Below are positions 1 through 9,101 of a DNA stretch of 32,180 nucleotides, piece after piece. The DNA comes from a virus. The stretch is taken from positions 1 to 32,180 of the IMG/VR virus record IMGVR_UViG_3300025671_000280, one strand, 5' to 3'. Both the position numbers and the translations under genes were made by a program. Position 1 is the first letter of the stretch. Every line of letters starts with the position of its first letter. The notes below the pieces were generated by a model. That model ran no database searches. It was not told the DNA's origin and saw only the letters and a program-made list of their open reading frames with translations.

Positions 1-261
1 GTAATTGAAGGAAAACTAATACCAACTGATCAAGTTGAGTCAACCTGGATTAATTATGCTGCTAATTGTAGAGGTAAACTATTAACAATACCAAATAAAG
101 TTAGCCATTTAGTTTTAGCAAGCAGTGATTTTAATGAAGTTGAAAAAATACTTAAAGACGTAATATACGAGGCATTAGAGGAATTAGCAAATGACCCAAT
201 ACCAAGAGAATATAGAGAAAATACTCTTATCGACAAAGAAGACCTGGACTCCACCACCTAA
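1..261 (+). CDS. Terminase small subunit, Nu1-like (5' truncated)
   Basis: Frame 1 is open from the window edge to a TAA at 259-261 and gives 86 residues of a C-terminal part. The stretch reading LLTIPNKVSH followed by EVEKILKDVI and ALEEL matches the typical end of Nu1-type small terminases, where a conserved Leu-x-x-Ile-Pro segment precedes a helical dimerisation and large-subunit contact region. In that family the N-terminal winged helix recognises the packaging site; that part lies outside the window. The large terminase start overlaps the last 71 bases in another frame, the usual coupling of the two subunits. The family call is based on pattern and position; the truncation prevents checking the DNA-binding domain. 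Confidence 0.8.
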   Translation, partial: VIEGKLIPTDQVESTWINYAANCRGKLLTIPNKVSHLVLASSDFNEVEKILKDVIYEALEELANDPIPREYRENTLIDKEDLDSTT

Positions 262-2264: not shown

Positions 2265-2666
2265 ATGATAGGAGATATTAAAAACTTAAACCGGTATTAT
2301 CAAATATATCGGTTTATTGCTAATGCTTCAGATAATGAAAAATTACATTATCTTGAATTTCGTGCTAAGTTTATTCAAGAAGAATTAAACGAATTAATTA
2401 CAGCAATTGAAAATAATGAAGCTGATGAAGTAGTAGATGCTTTAATAGATATTATTGTTATTGCTTTAGGAACACTAGATGCATTTGATGTAAATATTAA
2501 AAAAGCATGGAAACGAGTACATCATGCAAACATGCAGAAAAAAATAGGGGTTAAAGATACCAGGCCAAATCCTTTAGGATTACCTGATCTTGTTAAACCA
2601 GAGGACTGGCAAGCTCCTCAACATTTTGATAATGTAGGTAAATTAAATTTTTTAGATAAGGAGTAA
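2265..2666 (+). CDS. MazG-like all-alpha NTP pyrophosphohydrolase
   Basis: A 133-residue helical protein. QEELNELITAIE followed by EADEVVDALIDI gives the EExxE and ExxD metal-binding pattern of the all-alpha NTP pyrophosphohydrolases (MazG, HisE, dimeric dUTPase and T4-type dCTPase). These hydrolyse an NTP or dNTP to the monophosphate and pyrophosphate using Mg ions. The last 45 residues (NPLGLPDLVKPEDWQAP) form a Pro-rich tail seen in phage members. It starts three bases after the preceding gene and ends two bases before the next. In this cassette a dCTPase or dUTPase role that feeds monophosphate to the synthase homologue is plausible, but substrate specificity cannot be read from sequence. 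Confidence 0.8.
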   Translation: MIGDIKNLNRYYQIYRFIANASDNEKLHYLEFRAKFIQEELNELITAIENNEADEVVDALIDIIVIALGTLDAFDVNIKKAWKRVHHANMQKKIGVKDTRPNPLGLPDLVKPEDWQAPQHFDNVGKLNFLDKE

Positions 2667-2668
2667 CT

Positions 2669-2932
2669 ATGCATTCAGTATTAAGTGAAGCGGCAGCTTT
2701 ACAAACACAAAAAGCCGAAGATTATAATTCAAATGATTCAGAAGCTAAACAAGAATACTTTCCGTACGGGCATCATTCGTATTTGCAAATGATTTCAACA
2801 AAAGTTAAACGCTTAGAGTCAATTGCATTTAACGAAAAAAATCCTAACTTTGAATCAGCTTACGATTCGGTATTAGATTTAATTAACTATGCAAGTTTTT
2901 ATGGAGCTTATTTAAAAAAACATGGAAAATGA
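2669..2932 (+). CDS. DUF1599-type (nucleotide-modification-associated) protein
   Basis: An 87-residue protein with the pattern of DUF1599: LQTQKAEDYN near residue 15, KVKRLESIA in the middle and ESAYDSVLDLINYA near the end. This family has been linked by gene neighbourhood to enzymes that modify nucleotides or DNA bases, and its helical layout resembles other all-alpha pyrophosphohydrolases. The role is not experimentally settled as far as I know. It has a GGAG ribosome-binding site and overlaps the synthase gene by 11 bases, so translation is probably coupled. Its position directly before a synthase predicted to use dCMP fits the family's association. The family assignment is by eye. Confidence 0.65.
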   Translation: MHSVLSEAAALQTQKAEDYNSNDSEAKQEYFPYGHHSYLQMISTKVKRLESIAFNEKNPNFESAYDSVLDLINYASFYGAYLKKHGK

Positions 2933-3716
2933 AAAACAATACTTTGCATTGGTTAATAAAATATTAACTGAAGGAGTAACTAGAAATAAAGAACGTACTG
3001 GCACAGGTACTAAAAGTATATTTGGTGCACATTTAGAATTAAATGTAAAAGCTGGTTTCCCATTATTTACACATAGAAAAATATTTTATAAAGGGGTAAT
3101 TGGTGAGTTAATATCATTTTTACGCGGTCATACTAATGTTAATGATTTTAAAACATTAGGTTGTAACTATTGGGACGAATGGGCGGAGCCCGATGGAAAT
3201 CTAGGACCAATATACGGTTATCAATGGCGTAACTATGCTGGTTTACAAATAGATCAGTTAAAAAATGTAATTGAAGAAGCTAAAGTAAATCCTGAATCAA
3301 GAAGATTATATGTTACAGCATGGAATCCAATTGATGCTGATAAAATGGCTTTATTACCATGTTTTCACGGTTTTCAATTATTAATTCATAATAATTCTTT
3401 GAATTTAGTAGTCAATATGCGCTCGTCTGATGTAATGCTTGGATTACCTTCAGATATATTATTTCATGCATTGTTAATGTTAGTTTTGTCTAATGAATTA
3501 GATATAACTCCTCATAAACTAATATTTAATTTAGGCGATGCGCATATCTATAACAATCATTTAAGATTTGCCCGTATGGTTCATGAATTACAAATATTTA
3601 ATCCACCTCAAGTTAGATTATATTATGAAGCTGGAATAGATAATTTATATCCTAACGATTTTATAGTTGCAAGTTATAAACATAATGCAGCACAACATTT
3701 AAAAATTAATGTCTAA
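2922..3716 (+). CDS. Thymidylate synthase family protein with Asn-to-Asp change; predicted dCMP (hydroxy)methylase
   Basis: A 264-residue ThyA-fold protein, normal length. Family residues present: Arg25 in ERTGTGT, Glu62, Trp84 and Trp87 in WDEWAE, Arg127-Arg128 in PESRR, nucleophile Cys147 in LLPC, Arg167 and Asp170 in MRSSDV, His208 and Tyr210 in DAHIY. The Asn that reads the dUMP uracil (GLPFN in E. coli, Asn177) is Asp178 here (GLPSD), in a gap-free stretch. Asp at this position is found in T4 dCMP hydroxymethylase, and the Asn-to-Asp mutant of Lactobacillus casei synthase prefers dCMP. Also as in T4 gp42, VVNMRS precedes the Asp. Retention of both Trp makes it otherwise synthase-like, so methyl versus hydroxymethyl transfer is open. 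Overlaps both neighbours. Confidence 0.85.
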   Translation: MENEKQYFALVNKILTEGVTRNKERTGTGTKSIFGAHLELNVKAGFPLFTHRKIFYKGVIGELISFLRGHTNVNDFKTLGCNYWDEWAEPDGNLGPIYGYQWRNYAGLQIDQLKNVIEEAKVNPESRRLYVTAWNPIDADKMALLPCFHGFQLLIHNNSLNLVVNMRSSDVMLGLPSDILFHALLMLVLSNELDITPHKLIFNLGDAHIYNNHLRFARMVHELQIFNPPQVRLYYEAGIDNLYPNDFIVASYKHNAAQHLKINV

Positions 3717-4173
3717 TTATTCTTATTCTTGGAATTTAAAATATTTAACACTTGCTAAAAAGTTTGCTAGTTGGTCTAAAGACCCTTCAACACAAGTAGG
3801 AGCAGTAGCAATAGGTAATAAAGGCCAGGTATTATCACAAGGTTATAATGGTTTTCCTAGAGGATTTAATGATTCACCATTAATATATAAAGATTCAAAA
3901 TTAAAAAGTAATTATATTATTCATGCTGAAATGAATTGTATTTATCATGCAACATTAAATGGCATATCATTAGAAGGATCAACATTGTTTGTATATGGGC
4001 TTGATGTATGCCATGAATGTGCTAAAGGTATTATTCAAGTAGGTATAAAAGAAATAGTTACTTATTCTCCAAATAAGCCAAAAGAAAAATGGATTGATAG
4101 TTTTAAAATATCTCAAAAATTATTTACAGAAAATAATATAAATTATATAAAAATAGACCAAAATAAATTTTAG
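3709..4173 (+). CDS. Deoxycytidylate (dCMP) deaminase
   Basis: A 154-residue zinc-dependent deaminase that would convert dCMP to dUMP. Visible are DPSTQVGAV (25-33), GYNGFPRGFND (45-55), the zinc and catalytic motif HAEMN (His72, Glu74) and the second zinc pair CHEC (Cys101, Cys104). The Pro that usually precedes the first Cys is Val here. Start and stop overlap the synthase-like gene by 8 bases. If the neighbour methylates dCMP, this enzyme could deaminate 5-methyl-dCMP directly to dTMP; phage dCMP deaminases can accept 5-substituted dCMP. Alternatively it only supplies dUMP to a host synthase. The family is clear; the physiological substrate is inferred. Confidence 0.9.
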   Translation: MSNYSYSWNLKYLTLAKKFASWSKDPSTQVGAVAIGNKGQVLSQGYNGFPRGFNDSPLIYKDSKLKSNYIIHAEMNCIYHATLNGISLEGSTLFVYGLDVCHECAKGIIQVGIKEIVTYSPNKPKEKWIDSFKISQKLFTENNINYIKIDQNKF

Positions 4174-4235: not shown

Positions 4236-4817
4236 ATGGCCAATAAATTCGACAGCACATACTATTCTACAACAGAACCCAATGAATTACAGCTTGGTGA
4301 TTTTTGGGCATGGAAAAAAATTGATCTTTCAGTTGATTATCCTACTTCATTATATAGTTTATCATACGAATTTAATTTAGTTGACGGGTCAACAGCAGCC
4401 AATTTTACATTAACAGCTACAGAATCTAATGATGAATATATTATTGAAGCAAGTAATACAACATCATATACTGCTGGCGAATATAATTGGGTTTCTTATA
4501 TAACACGATCAAGCGATTCGGCAAGAATTAAATTATCTGAAGGTTTTACAGAAATACAGCAAAATTATGCTACTACAACAAGCTCAGTTAGAAGCCATGC
4601 AAAAAAAGTTTTAGATGCTATAGAAGCAGTAATTGAAAATCGTGCAACTATGGACCAATCATCAATGAGTATTGCTGGTAGATCGTTATCAAGATTAACA
4701 ATTGATGAATTAATGACATTTAGAGATAGATATAAAATAGAATACTTAAAAGAAGTTAAACAGGCTAGAATTAAAAATAAAAAAGATTCGGGTAATTCTA
4801 TCAAAGTGAGGTTTTAA
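4236..4817 (+). CDS. Head-tail joining protein, gpW-like C-terminus with N-terminal beta domain
   Basis: A 193-residue protein between the terminase/cassette and the portal, the position of lambda gpW. Residues from about 120 on (VLDAIEAVIENRA, SIAGRSLSRLTIDELMTFRD, YLKEVKQARI) resemble gpW, a small protein that closes the DNA-filled head before tail joining. The first 110 residues are not in lambda gpW: they look like a beta-sandwich, starting with KFDSTYYSTTEPNELQLGDF. The product is about three times longer than gpW (68 residues). No Shine-Dalgarno site is seen before the ATG. The gpW link rests on position and the C-terminal pattern; the N-terminal domain's role is unknown. Confidence 0.6.
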   Translation: MANKFDSTYYSTTEPNELQLGDFWAWKKIDLSVDYPTSLYSLSYEFNLVDGSTAANFTLTATESNDEYIIEASNTTSYTAGEYNWVSYITRSSDSARIKLSEGFTEIQQNYATTTSSVRSHAKKVLDAIEAVIENRATMDQSSMSIAGRSLSRLTIDELMTFRDRYKIEYLKEVKQARIKNKKDSGNSIKVRF

Positions 4818-4819
4818 AT

Positions 4820-6328
4820 ATGGCCTGGTATAATCCATTTATAAATAACAAAAAAAATAAAAAAGTTACAAAAATTAGAAGATATACCGGAGCAAATACT
4901 GGTAGATTATTTTCAGACTTTACCGCATCAAGCACATCAGCAGACGCTGAAATTAAAGATCAATTAAGAATACTAAGAGAAAGAAGCCGTGATTTAGCTA
5001 GAAACGATTCTTATGTAACAAGATATTTAAACTTAATGGTTAGTAATATTATTGGTCATAATGGAATTAGATTAAGTGTTAAAGCTCGTGATTCAAAAGG
5101 TGATTTAGATATTATTGGAAATCAAACTATTGAACGAGAGTTTAAAAATTGGTCAAGAATGGGAAATTGTACATTAAATGGTCGTCAATCATTTTTAGAT
5201 TGTCAAAAGTTATTTGTCGAAGCGTTAATGAGAGATGGCGAAGTTTTAGTTAGACATGCTACTCCGACTGATTCAAAATATAAATATAAAATTCAATTTT
5301 TAGAAGCGGATCATTTAGATGAAACAAAAAATGATTTCAATCCTCAAACAAAAAATAGAATTAAAATGGGTGTTGAAGTTGATAAACATGATAAGCCAGT
5401 TGCATATTATTTGTTTAAAAATCATCCTTATGATAATACATATCAATCACCTAAAGAACATATAAGAGTTCCAGCTGAAGAAATTATTCATGCTTATATG
5501 CCAACACGTCCTGAGCAAACCAGGGGCGTGCCTATGACTGCTTCAGCTATGCCTCAAATAAAAATGCTTAATGGCTATATGGAGGCCGAAATAACAGCCG
5601 CACGTGTTTCAGCGGCTAAAATGGGATTTTTTACTTCGCCAGACGGTGATGGATATGTTGGTGAAGATTTTGAAGATACTTATACTCCAATTATGGAAGC
5701 GCAAGCTGGTTCATTTGAACAACTTCCTGCGGGAATGGATTTTAAAAGCTTTGACCCAGATCATCCAAGCACAGCATTTGGCCCGTTTACAACACAAGTT
5801 TTAAGAGGAATAGCTTCTGGTTTAAATATTTCATACCATGCTCTAACAAACGATTTAAGTTCAGTTAATTATAGTTCATTAAGAGCTGGCGCATTAGAAG
5901 ATAGAGAAATGTATAAGCTGTATCAAAGATTTGTTGTAGATCATTTTATGAGGCCTGTATTTGAAAAATGGTTAGAAATGGCTATTTCAAGCGGGGCTAT
6001 TATCATGGACCCTGAGGTAAATATTCCTTTACCAATGTCTAAGTTTGAAAAATTTGCAGCTGATACAGTATTTATTGGCCGTTCATTCCAGTGGGTTGAC
6101 CCTCAAAAAGAAATGAATGCATCAATAAGTGGTATGCAAGCAGGCTTGGTAACATACCAAGATGTTCAATCTAATTATGGCAGAGATGTTGAAGAGTTAT
6201 ATGAGCAACATGAAAGAGAGCAAAAATTAGCAGAACAATATGGAATTCAAACAGCTTTCCAACCATTTGGAACGAAGCTGCCAATTGAACCAGTAGTACA
6301 AGGAGGCAGCAATGGCGATTCCGAATAA
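4820..6328 (+). CDS. Portal protein, lambda gpB-like
   Basis: A 502-residue protein of the lambda-type portal family, which forms the dodecameric ring through which DNA enters and leaves the capsid and on which head assembly starts. Typical features are an N-terminal RLFSDF and an Arg-rich RERSRDLARN-YVTRYLNLMV segment, NIIGHNGIRL, the central QFLEADHLDE and YYLFKNHP beta region, EEIIHAYMPTRPEQTRGVP, and AALTNDL-type Ser/Tyr-rich sequence near SSVNYSSLRAG. Length matches gpB (533). It starts two bases after the gpW-like gene and overlaps the polyprotein by 17 bases, so portal and protease-capsid genes are translationally linked. Confidence 0.93.
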   Translation: MAWYNPFINNKKNKKVTKIRRYTGANTGRLFSDFTASSTSADAEIKDQLRILRERSRDLARNDSYVTRYLNLMVSNIIGHNGIRLSVKARDSKGDLDIIGNQTIEREFKNWSRMGNCTLNGRQSFLDCQKLFVEALMRDGEVLVRHATPTDSKYKYKIQFLEADHLDETKNDFNPQTKNRIKMGVEVDKHDKPVAYYLFKNHPYDNTYQSPKEHIRVPAEEIIHAYMPTRPEQTRGVPMTASAMPQIKMLNGYMEAEITAARVSAAKMGFFTSPDGDGYVGEDFEDTYTPIMEAQAGSFEQLPAGMDFKSFDPDHPSTAFGPFTTQVLRGIASGLNISYHALTNDLSSVNYSSLRAGALEDREMYKLYQRFVVDHFMRPVFEKWLEMAISSGAIIMDPEVNIPLPMSKFEKFAADTVFIGRSFQWVDPQKEMNASISGMQAGLVTYQDVQSNYGRDVEELYEQHEREQKLAEQYGIQTAFQPFGTKLPIEPVVQGGSNGDSE

Positions 6329-9101
6329 AGGCATGAAAGCAGAAGCTATTAAAGGTTTAGACTGGCGTAAAGAATTTGGTAGGGGAGGAACAAGAGTTGG
6401 CTTAACTCGTGCAAATCAAATAAAAAATGGTGTTGATTTATCTGATTCAACTATTAAAAGAATGTATAGTTTTTTTGCTAGACATGAAGTTGATAAACAA
6501 GCTGAAGGATTTAGACCTGGTGAAAAAGGTTACCCCAGCAATGGAAGAATAGCATGGGCTTTATGGGGAGGAGACCCTGGTTTTGCATGGTCAAAAGCAT
6601 TAGTTGAAAAAATGAAAAAAGAAGATGAGCGTAATTTAGAAATGCGCCCATACCCAAATGAACATGCTGCTCGTATAGAAGACCCTGAGCAGTTTGATAC
6701 ATTTAGAAGAAAAAATAATGAATTTAAACCTGGTATACATGTAATACATGGTATTAAAGATAATGAAAGATTAATTCAAAGCATAAGGTTTGATTCTGAT
6801 ATGTTTACTCCGGACGAAGCAAAAGCATGGCTTGAAAGAAATGAATTTGAATATATTAAATTTGAAAATGCAATTGACGAAAGAGCAATATCAGAAAAAA
6901 CAGAAAATGCTTTAAAAAATAAATTAAAAGAACATAATGACGAAGTAGGTGATGTTCAAAGTAAAAAAACAACGCTTACTGTATTAAAAAAAGTTTATGA
7001 TCGCGGGATTGGAGCCTATAACACAAATCCAGGCTCAGTAAGGCCTCAGGTTAGTAATTCTAATCAATGGGCTATGGCTCGTGTGAATAGTTTCCTTTAT
7101 GCTTTACGTAATGGAAAATATAGAGGTGGTAAGCATGATACTGATTTACTACCTAAATCTCACCCTTTATCATCGAAAGAGGAAAAAGCTATGAAAGATA
7201 AAGACGATAGACATATCCTCAACGTGAATGAAACAGATAACTCTGTAGTTATTGAATTTTCAAAACATCATGAGGATAAAGTTGAAGAAGAAAATGTTGA
7301 CGCAGTTTCTTCTTATTATGAAGATGATGAAAGAAAAGTTGTTGATTTACCATTAAGGTATAGAACAATTGATCTTTCAAAAAATTCATATGTTGATGAA
7401 GAAAAAAGATTGGTTCGAATTGGTGTTTCATCAGAAGAACCAGTTGAACGTTCTTTTGGCTTAGAAGTTTTAAGCCATAAATCAGATGATATAGATATGG
7501 AATTTGTGTCATCTGGAAGGGCTCCATTTTTATTAGACCATGACATGTCTAAGCAAATTGGAGTTATCGAAGAATTTAAACTTGATGAGGCAGCTAAAAG
7601 GACTATAGCTGTTGTTAGATTTGGTAAATCAGCACTTGCTCAAGAAGTTTTTCAAGATGTAGTCGATGGTATTCGCATGAATATAAGTGTTGGCTATAAA
7701 GTAAATAAATTAGAAAGAGTGAAAGACAACGACCAAATGCTTTATAAAGCTCAATGGACACCGCTTGAAGTATCAAGTGTTTCCGTTCCAGCCGATCAAA
7801 GCAGACTAGTTGGGGTTGGACGCTCAGCTAAAATTAATAAGGATATTATTATGACTGAAGAAAAAAAAGATATTAATCTTGACGAAGTCAGAACTAAAAC
7901 TCTTGAAGAAGCCAAAGCTGAATATAAAAGAAACTCAAAAGAGATTATAGATTTAGCTTTACAGCATAACAAAAGAGATTTAGCTGATAACGCAATTAAA
8001 GAAGGTCTTACAGTTGAAGAGTTTAGGGGCGTATTATTAAATGAAATATGTAATGATAAGCCACTTGAAACTGCTGAAATTGGTATGACTCAAAATGAAG
8101 TGAGAGAATTCTCATTAGTAAGAGCAATTAATGCTTTAGCAAACCCAACTGATAGAAAAGCTCAAGAGGCTGCTGCTTTTGAATTTGAATGTTCAAATCA
8201 AGCTGCTAGACAACAAGGAAGAACAGCACAAGGAATTATGATTCCAGCTGATGTACTTGGTAACTGGAGTAAAAGAGATATTAATAGTGGAGATGATTCA
8301 ACATTAATATCAGAAGACTATCGTCAGGGTGATTTTATTGATGTTTTACGTAATTCATCAAGTGTCATGCAAGCGGGCGCAACTATGCTAAGAGGGCTCT
8401 CCGGCTCCGTCGTAATTCCAAAGAAAACAGCTGCTTCATCAGCTGCTTGGATTGCAACTGAAGGTAATGCTGCTTCTGAAAGCGAATTTACATCAGGTAG
8501 TGTAACTATGTCTCCAAAAGTAATTGGAGCGTTTACTGATGCTACAAGATTGCTTTTACAACAATCTTCATTAGATGTTGAAAACTTAATCAGAGACGAC
8601 TTAACACAATCTATAGCTACTGCTATCGATTTAGGTGCTTTAGCTGGTTCAGGTACAAGTGGTCAGCCAACTGGTATTGCTAATACTTCTGGTATTAACA
8701 CTACAACTTTTGCTGCTGCTAATCCAACATATGCTGAAATTATTGCTATGGAATCTGCAGTTGCTGCTGATAATGCGTTAGTTGGAAGCTTAGCTTATAT
8801 ATGTAAACCAAGTGATTATGGTACATTAAAAACAACTTCAAAAGATAGCGGAAGTGGTCAATTTGTAGTTGAGCCAGACGGAAGAATGAATGGCTATAAT
8901 GTTATTAGATCAAATCAAGTAACAGCAGGTGATTTCTACTTTGGTAATTTTGCTGATTTACTTATTGGTATGTATGGCGGCCTTGATATAACAGTGGACC
9001 CATATGCGTTAAGCACATCAGGTGGAGTAAGAATTATTGCTTTACAAACTGTTGATGTAGCTGTACGTCATGCGGTATCTTTCTGTAAATCAAGCGACTA
9101 A
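6312..9101 (+). CDS. Prohead protease-major capsid polyprotein (HK97 fold) with N-terminal accessory domains
   Basis: A 929-residue fusion. About 1-100: a domain with RGGTRVGLTRA, KRMYSFFARHEVDKQ and GRIAWALWGGDPG, often found beside phage proteases. About 112-180: PYPNEHAARI to DEAKAWLE, another phage accessory domain. About 228-290: RGIGAYNTNP to HDTDLLPKSHPLSS, a DUF5824-like segment. About 340-505: prohead serine protease with His410 in LLDHD, Ser459 in NISVGY and VSSVSVPAD. About 514-620: charged helical delta-type scaffold (KTLEEAKAEYKRN). About 640-929: HK97-fold major capsid protein, with GIMIPADVL, WIATEGNAASES, GSGTSGQPTGI and a C-terminal DITVDPY. The protease would cleave scaffold from capsid. 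Two in-frame internal starts with good ribosome sites lie at 7191 and 7851. GAGG-type site precedes 6312. Confidence 0.92.
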   Translation: MAIPNKGMKAEAIKGLDWRKEFGRGGTRVGLTRANQIKNGVDLSDSTIKRMYSFFARHEVDKQAEGFRPGEKGYPSNGRIAWALWGGDPGFAWSKALVEKMKKEDERNLEMRPYPNEHAARIEDPEQFDTFRRKNNEFKPGIHVIHGIKDNERLIQSIRFDSDMFTPDEAKAWLERNEFEYIKFENAIDERAISEKTENALKNKLKEHNDEVGDVQSKKTTLTVLKKVYDRGIGAYNTNPGSVRPQVSNSNQWAMARVNSFLYALRNGKYRGGKHDTDLLPKSHPLSSKEEKAMKDKDDRHILNVNETDNSVVIEFSKHHEDKVEEENVDAVSSYYEDDERKVVDLPLRYRTIDLSKNSYVDEEKRLVRIGVSSEEPVERSFGLEVLSHKSDDIDMEFVSSGRAPFLLDHDMSKQIGVIEEFKLDEAAKRTIAVVRFGKSALAQEVFQDVVDGIRMNISVGYKVNKLERVKDNDQMLYKAQWTPLEVSSVSVPADQSRLVGVGRSAKINKDIIMTEEKKDINLDEVRTKTLEEAKAEYKRNSKEIIDLALQHNKRDLADNAIKEGLTVEEFRGVLLNEICNDKPLETAEIGMTQNEVREFSLVRAINALANPTDRKAQEAAAFEFECSNQAARQQGRTAQGIMIPADVLGNWSKRDINSGDDSTLISEDYRQGDFIDVLRNSSSVMQAGATMLRGLSGSVVIPKKTAASSAAWIATEGNAASESEFTSGSVTMSPKVIGAFTDATRLLLQQSSLDVENLIRDDLTQSIATAIDLGALAGSGTSGQPTGIANTSGINTTTFAAANPTYAEIIAMESAVAADNALVGSLAYICKPSDYGTLKTTSKDSGSGQFVVEPDGRMNGYNVIRSNQVTAGDFYFGNFADLLIGMYGGLDITVDPYALSTSGGVRIIALQTVDVAVRHAVSFCKSSD
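7178..7193 (+). promoter_or_regulatory. Internal ribosome-binding site and in-frame ATG before protease domain
   Basis: AGAGG at 7178-7182 lies eight bases before ATG 7191, which is in frame with the polyprotein (Met294). Initiation here would give a 636-residue protein starting MKDKDDRHIL, without the two N-terminal accessory domains and nearly all of the DUF5824-like one. The start lies where stand-alone prohead proteases would begin. Use of this start is inferred. Confidence 0.45.
7839..7853 (+). promoter_or_regulatory. Internal ribosome-binding site and in-frame ATG for free capsid protein
   Basis: AAGGA at 7839-7843 lies seven bases before ATG 7851, in frame with the polyprotein (Met514). 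Initiation would give a 416-residue scaffold-plus-capsid protein starting MTEEKKDIN, immediately after the protease domain. This is a sensible way to make excess capsid subunits over protease, comparable in logic to nested scaffold starts in lambda gene C. Placement exactly at the domain boundary supports it. Confidence 0.6.

What the first reader, a model, noticed from the sequence alone, without database searches (positions are those of the whole stretch)
2922..3716. Thymidylate synthase homologue carrying the dCMP-specific Asn-to-Asp change
Seen: Asp178 replaces the Asn that in dUMP-specific thymidylate synthases reads the uracil ring, within a gap-free alignment (GLPSD versus GLPFN). All catalytic landmarks (Cys147, Arg167, Asp170, His208, Tyr210, Glu62) are present. 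Known: T4 dCMP hydroxymethylase carries Asp here, and the same single change turns a bacterial synthase towards dCMP. Inference: the enzyme makes 5-methyl- or 5-hydroxymethyl-dCMP. Annotation pipelines would call it plain ThyA and miss this.
Basis: partly seen in the sequence, partly recalled or inferred. Interest (0 to 1): 0.75.

Follow-up and report, generated by a model that had tools for sequence, protein, structure and literature searches.

The report
Phage enzyme likely makes 5-methyl-cytosine nucleotide
A small marine phage carries an enzyme that annotation software calls thymidylate synthase, but its active site, its gene neighbourhood and its relatives suggest it methylates the cytosine nucleotide dCMP, so the phage can build its DNA with 5-methylcytosine; some close relatives carry at the same spot a different enzyme that would add hydroxymethyl instead.

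Summary
ORF 2922-3716 is a 264-aa ThyA-fold protein with Asp178 at E. coli Asn177, in an ungapped alignment. Asp178 is fixed in all relatives down to 59% identity (GAT in 22/22 distinct close sequences).

The dCMP inference holds and can be narrowed to methylation. The gene lies between a MazG-like pyrophosphatase, a DUF1599-like gene and a dCMP deaminase. The same order occurs in Bosavirus/Pamexvirus phages, kin of Xp12, whose DNA has 5-methylcytosine for all cytosine. The nearest cultured clade (Rosemount/Loughboroughvirus) includes Salmonella phage S144, whose DNA resists C-containing restriction enzymes and whose modification gene was never identified. T4-type hydroxymethylase signatures (Asp at Cys-3, Ser-Asn-Tyr, no C-tail) are absent.

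At the same locus in close relatives, a T4 gp42-like hydroxymethylase replaces this gene. All 12 such loci with complete sequence carry extra genes behind the deaminase; 31 of 31 loci of the window type carry none.

Most likely function: a dCMP 5-methylase. No biochemistry exists for it. Asp177-type TS homologues in modified phages were already known (MetaGPA 2021). What appears new is this third Asp clade, the allele exchange, and the gene candidates for S144 and AXL1.

The parts
2922..3716 (+). predicted dCMP 5-methylase (ThyA/PF00303 fold; Asp178, Phe148, Met166, Leu144, intact C-terminal tail)
2265..2666 (+). MazG-like / all-alpha NTP pyrophosphatase (PF01503), inferred dCTP pyrophosphatase; matches the N-terminal half of the Bosavirus/Pamexvirus pyrophosphohydrolase (phrog_18404)
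   Evidence: 38% identity, E=3e-13 to DLP4 protein
2669..2932 (+). DUF1599-like ('nucleotide modification associated domain 1') protein; matches the C-terminal half of the same Bosavirus/Pamexvirus protein
   Evidence: Pfam sub-threshold E=0.0047, phrog_18404 168-250 E=4e-16, 38% identity E=1e-19 to DLP4
3709..4173 (+). dCMP deaminase (PF00383), zinc ligands present; start overlaps the end of the methylase gene
   Evidence: kept in both allele types
4236..4817 (+). next gene (virion module, unnamed); begins 62 bp after the deaminase stop: no tailoring gene in between

Best explanation
The gene encodes a dCMP 5-methylase. It binds dCMP because Asp178 (in place of the uracil-reading Asn, with His147->Phe and Gln165->Met) can pair with and protonate N3/N4 of cytosine. 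Cys147 attacks C6, the one-carbon unit of methylene-tetrahydrofolate is transferred to C5, and the intermediate is reduced by hydride from tetrahydrofolate as in ThyA, giving 5-methyl-dCMP plus dihydrofolate. The neighbouring MazG-like enzyme (probably with the DUF1599-like protein) would remove dCTP, the deaminase would drain dCMP to dUMP, and host kinases and polymerase would place 5-methyl-dC in phage DNA, protecting it from restriction. Shown: residues, conservation, gene order, allele exchange. Inferred: substrate, product, roles of the neighbours, extent of replacement.
For: (1) Asp178 fixed, under purifying selection. (2) Phe148 and Met166 change with it: Asn-type homologues have His and mostly Gln; all Asp-type groups but L094 have F/Y/P/T and M/L/I. 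MetaGPA found positions 177 and 147 to be the two most associated with modified contigs (PMC8670742). (3) MazG-like gene beside the TS in all 49 Asp-type loci with usable flank versus 0 of 50 Asn-type within the flank. (4) Same order pyrophosphohydrolase-TS-deaminase in DLP4, AAT-1, AXL1, all Asp; AXL1 is close kin of Xp12 and its DNA resists C-containing enzymes (PMC9206674); Xp12 has 5mC for all C (PMC7653180). (5) The window clade groups with Rosemountvirus TS (98/91); S144 of the sister genus has Asp and the same motif and its DNA was cut only by AT-site enzymes, gene unidentified (PMC7432712). (6) A gp42-like enzyme replaces it at the same locus. (7) Methyl rather than hydroxymethyl: Leu at Cys-3, Ile/Val before Tyr, full C-tail, versus Asp, Ser-Asn and no tail in gp42 types (signature from PMC6400193); 31 of 31 window-type loci lack tailoring genes, 12 of 12 gp42-type loci have extra genes.
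Against: No enzyme assay and no chemistry of this phage's DNA. Xp12's own sequence was not in the collection, so its enzyme is judged from kin; those kin have Asn at Cys-3 and mostly Ser/Thr-Ala before Tyr, so they are a separate lineage and not a perfect proxy. No dNMP kinase or DNA polymerase was recognised in the window. The deaminase could also point to thymidylate supply. Loci are related, so counts are not independent.
Confidence: 0.72

Rival explanations
1. It is a dCMP hydroxymethylase like T4 gp42, making 5-hydroxymethyl-dCMP.
For: Shares Asp, Met166 and the stretch VVNMRSxDV with gp42; occupies the same locus as gp42-like genes in relatives.
Against: Lacks the residues proposed as the hydroxymethylase signature and needed in T4 (Asp145, Ser94) and has the ThyA C-terminal tail that T4 lacks; falls outside the gp42 clade in the tree; no tailoring gene beside it in 31 of 31 loci.
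Confidence: 0.14
2. It is a thymidylate synthase that still prefers dUMP, with the deaminase supplying dUMP.
For: ThyA fold, NCBIfam names it thymidylate synthase; dCMP deaminase next door; the CRP-822 paper reads the deaminase of this family that way (PMC12629253).
Against: Asp at this site in place of Asn switches E. coli and L. casei enzymes toward dCMP (cited in PMC8670742; original papers not read); Asp is fixed and co-varies with 147 and 165; a gp42-like enzyme, which is not expected to make dTMP, substitutes for it while the deaminase is kept.
Confidence: 0.07
3. Thymidylate by-pass: the enzyme methylates dCMP and the neighbouring deaminase converts 5-methyl-dCMP to dTMP, so the aim is dTMP and not modified DNA.
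For: Both genes overlap in one operon; some dCMP deaminases are known to accept 5-methyl-dCMP (from memory, not checked).
Against: The same deaminase is kept beside the gp42-type allele, where it could not yield dTMP from the product; MazG-like and DUF1599-like neighbours point to dCTP control; DNA of cultured phages with related enzymes appears cytosine-modified.
Confidence: 0.07

Closest known systems
Xp12 dCMP methyltransferase and the TS-like proteins of its Bosavirus/Pamexvirus kin (DLP4, AXL1, AAT-1)
   Same: Asp at E. coli 177; same order pyrophosphohydrolase (MazG + DUF1599-like), TS, dCMP deaminase; Xp12 DNA has 5mC for all C and a dCMP methylase activity is on record.
   Different: Separate clade: Asn at Cys-3, Pro after Cys, different C-tail, fused pyrophosphohydrolase, DHFR next door; about 30% identity. 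Xp12's own gene could not be read here.
Rosemountvirus / Loughboroughvirus 'thymidylate synthase' (brorfarstad, S144)
   Same: Sister clade of the window clade (98/91); PC[FY]HGFQ and [HN]MRSxDVxLGLPxD motifs; MazG-like gene directly upstream; S144 DNA resists C-containing enzymes.
   Different: 40% identity; 30 aa longer; deaminase not adjacent; modified base of S144 not identified.
T4 gp42 dCMP hydroxymethylase and marine gp42-like proteins
   Same: Asp at the base-reading site, Met before the Arg, same superfamily, same locus in relatives of this phage.
   Different: gp42 types have Asp at Cys-3, Ser-Asn-Tyr, Thr after Cys, no C-tail; the window enzyme has none of these.
E. coli ThyA N177D / L. 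casei TS N229D mutants
   Same: Asn-to-Asp with otherwise ThyA-like catalytic residues and C-tail; reported to methylate dCMP.
   Different: Engineered single changes; the natural enzyme also has His147->Phe and Gln165->Met.

Membership tests
Thymidylate synthase superfamily (PF00303) | Pfam model match and ThyA fold | tested here: met
   E=2.7e-75; AF2 model TM about 0.9 to ThyA structures
Thymidylate synthase superfamily (PF00303) | catalytic Cys, Glu58, Arg166, Asp169, His207, Tyr209 equivalents | tested here: met
dUMP-specific thymidylate synthase (ThyA function) | Asn177 reading uracil | tested here: not met
   Asp178
dUMP-specific thymidylate synthase (ThyA function) | His147 and Gln165 of E. 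coli ThyA | tested here: not met
   Phe148 and Met166
dCMP hydroxymethylase (T4 gp42 type) | Asp (or Glu) three residues before the catalytic Cys | tested here: not met
   Leu144; signature from PMC6400193
dCMP hydroxymethylase (T4 gp42 type) | Ser/Thr shortly before the catalytic Tyr; absent C-terminal tail | tested here: not met
   Pro-Ile-Tyr and full tail ending KINV
dCMP methylase (Xp12 type activity) | Asp at the base-reading site without hydroxymethylase signature residues | tested here: met
dCMP methylase (Xp12 type activity) | pyrophosphohydrolase - TS - dCMP deaminase gene order as in Xp12 kin | tested here: met
   read from DLP4, AAT-1 and AXL1, not from Xp12 itself
dCMP methylase (Xp12 type activity) | converts dCMP to 5-methyl-dCMP; 5mdC in phage DNA | not testable with these tools
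   needs enzyme assay and LC-MS
CRP-822-type phage family (PMC12629253) | homologous capsid and synteny with CRP-821/831; low-GC subgroup with deaminase and pyrophosphohydrolase | tested here: inconclusive
   capsid DNA 66-70% identical over part, similar gene order, GC 33%; subgroup lists not read

The most novel reading that the evidence does not exclude
One family of small marine phages switches between two cytosine chemistries by exchanging a single gene at a fixed place in an otherwise conserved nucleotide operon: a dCMP methylase (plain 5-methyl-dC, no further decoration) or a gp42-like dCMP hydroxymethylase coupled to tailoring genes (SAM-dependent methyltransferase-like, PLP-enzyme-like, unnamed proteins) that decorate the hydroxymethyl group.
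Probability: 0.6. Interest if true: 0.75.

Novelty: new variant of a known kind. Interest (0 to 1): 0.6.

Why it matters
Annotation hides this class as ordinary ThyA. Reading it as a dCMP methylase offers a gene candidate for cytosine modification in cultured phages whose authors could not name one (S144, AXL1), gives a sequence rule separating methylase, hydroxymethylase and true ThyA, and exposes an apparent methyl/hydroxymethyl allele exchange that could reflect pressure from restriction enzymes specific for one or the other base.

Tried and rejected
Three bacterial 'Asp' hits were regex artefacts. Xp12 MT664984 is not held; kin were used instead. The E. coli thyA interval fetched missed the gene; PDB alignments were used. 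My MazG profile was seeded from Asp-type loci, so Asn-type records were rechecked with Pfam PF01503: 1 of 50 over cut-off, on a different part of its contig from the TS. Loci found through the MazG query were left out of the adjacency count because that search selects for MazG. Hydroxymethylase, unchanged ThyA and thymidylate by-pass were considered (see rivals). No Rfam or tRNA hits in the window. No DNA methyltransferase was recognised among the window proteins scanned.

Full report
Observation. The ORF at 2922-3716 (+) encodes 264 aa with a full-length PF00303 match (E=2.7e-75). Against E. coli ThyA the stretch from the catalytic Cys to the base-reading position has no gap: Cys147/146, Phe148/His147, Met166/Gln165, Asp178/Asn177. 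The model predicted from 34 aligned viral sequences has pLDDT 91 and matches ThyA structures at TM about 0.9. NCBIfam would name it thymidylate synthase.

Conservation. Thirty close viral relatives (82-100% identity) all have PSD and PCF; relatives at 45% or less from the same search are Asn with PCH. In 22 distinct nucleotide sequences Asp178 is always GAT while the neighbouring Ser codon varies; dN/dS is 0.06-0.15. Four more distant relatives at 59-61% keep Asp and Phe. Eighty bacterial relatives are all Asn.

Tree. Fifty-one sequences give three Asp groups: gp42-like hydroxymethylases, the Bosavirus/Pamexvirus group, and the window clade with Rosemountvirus (98/91). One further sequence, L094, has Asp but keeps His and Gln and lies next to the Asn group. 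Long branches make the deep order unsure, so the number of origins of Asp is not settled.

Neighbourhood. The window gene overlaps the DUF1599-like gene before it and the deaminase after it: MazG-like 2265-2666, DUF1599-like 2669-2932, deaminase 3709-4173. All 49 Asp-type loci from TS-seeded searches with usable flank have a MazG-like gene beside the TS, and most also have the deaminase; none of 50 Asn-type loci has MazG in the flank and two have a deaminase (Pfam check). These loci fall into only a few lineages, so the counts are not independent. The two small window genes match the two halves of one Bosavirus protein (38% identity each; phrog_18404).

Cultured phages. DLP4, AAT-1 and AXL1 carry pyrophosphohydrolase, TS with Asp, and deaminase in this order, with one extra small gene between TS and deaminase in AAT-1. 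AXL1 DNA resists enzymes with G/C in their sites; its authors suggest 5mC as in the related Xp12 and state that the genetic mechanism is unknown (PMC9206674). Xp12 has 5mC for all cytosines (PMC7653180). S144 DNA was cut only by SspI and PacI, both AT-only sites, and no modification gene was found (PMC7432712); its TS has Asp and the window-type motif.

Methyl or hydroxymethyl. In T4 gp42 the water for hydroxylation is held by Asp145 (three before Cys) and Ser94, and the C-terminal tail that seals ThyA is missing (PMC6400193). All gp42-like proteins examined here have Asp and Ser-Asn at those columns and no ThyA-like tail; the window clade has Leu, Pro-Ile/Val and a full tail like ThyA. This predicts hydride transfer and a methyl product. 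It is an inference from signature residues.

Allele exchange. In relatives with flanks 72-91% identical at DNA level, the match to the window stops at or before the start of the TS gene (about 2922-2936 in L116, L121 and L122; near 2665 in L119 and L123) and resumes at about 3690-3741, and a gp42-like gene of about 212-218 aa lies between. Contig L122 has a terminase 95% identical to the window's but the gp42-like allele. Twelve gp42-type loci with complete sequence have 789-3902 bp between deaminase and the next virion gene; 31 window-type loci have 64-102 bp (Fisher p=6.5e-11, ignoring relatedness). The inserts hold a methyltransferase-like gene or a set including a PLP-enzyme-like gene and unnamed proteins. 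A methyl group offers no handle for further decoration and a hydroxymethyl group does, which fits the assignment.

Phage. The closest cultured relatives by DNA are Roseobacter phages CRP-821/822/823/831, of a family whose low-GC subgroup is predicted to infect SAR86 (PMC12629253). Those read here have no TS; CRP-821 has an annotated DNA cytosine methyltransferase. The window is nearly complete: L122 joins its end to its start across about 640 bp.

Known versus new. Asp177 and position 147 as marks of modified phage DNA, and co-occurrence of TS with PF01503 and deaminase domains, were reported by MetaGPA (PMC8670742). What I did not find in the papers searched is this clade, the allele exchange, or the assignment of these genes to S144 and AXL1; the library holds open-access papers only.

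Noticed in passing
L116:4096-4863, L123:4346-5083, L126:4044-4898: A SAM-dependent methyltransferase-like gene (PF13489) accompanies gp42-like hydroxymethylases in phages of two different kinds; it might O-methylate the hydroxymethyl group.
   Followed up: partly
L142:4610-8454, L186:6068-9055: Set of unnamed proteins plus a PLP-enzyme-like protein (PF00291, sub-threshold) between deaminase and virion genes, only with the gp42-like allele; looks like a cytosine hypermodification cassette.
   Followed up: partly
L119:2984-3289: In some gp42-type loci a dATP/dGTP diphosphohydrolase N-domain gene (PF18909) takes the place of the DUF1599-like gene.
   Followed up: no
L094:3569-4489: TS homologue with Asp at position 177 but His147 and Gln165 kept, with a MazG-like gene next to it: possible intermediate between ThyA and dCMP methylase.
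   Followed up: no
window 6312-9101: 929-aa protein whose C-terminal third is the capsid domain (PF05065) and which carries a long N-terminal part: capsid apparently fused to other functions.
   Followed up: no
window 1-190 and 32180: The record seems to start inside the small terminase gene; L122 bridges window end and start with about 640 bp, so the genome is nearly complete.
   Followed up: partly
L085 (CRP-821) 7910-8983: A cultured relative without TS has an annotated DNA cytosine methyltransferase, suggesting an alternative route to methylated cytosine in the same phage family.
   Followed up: no
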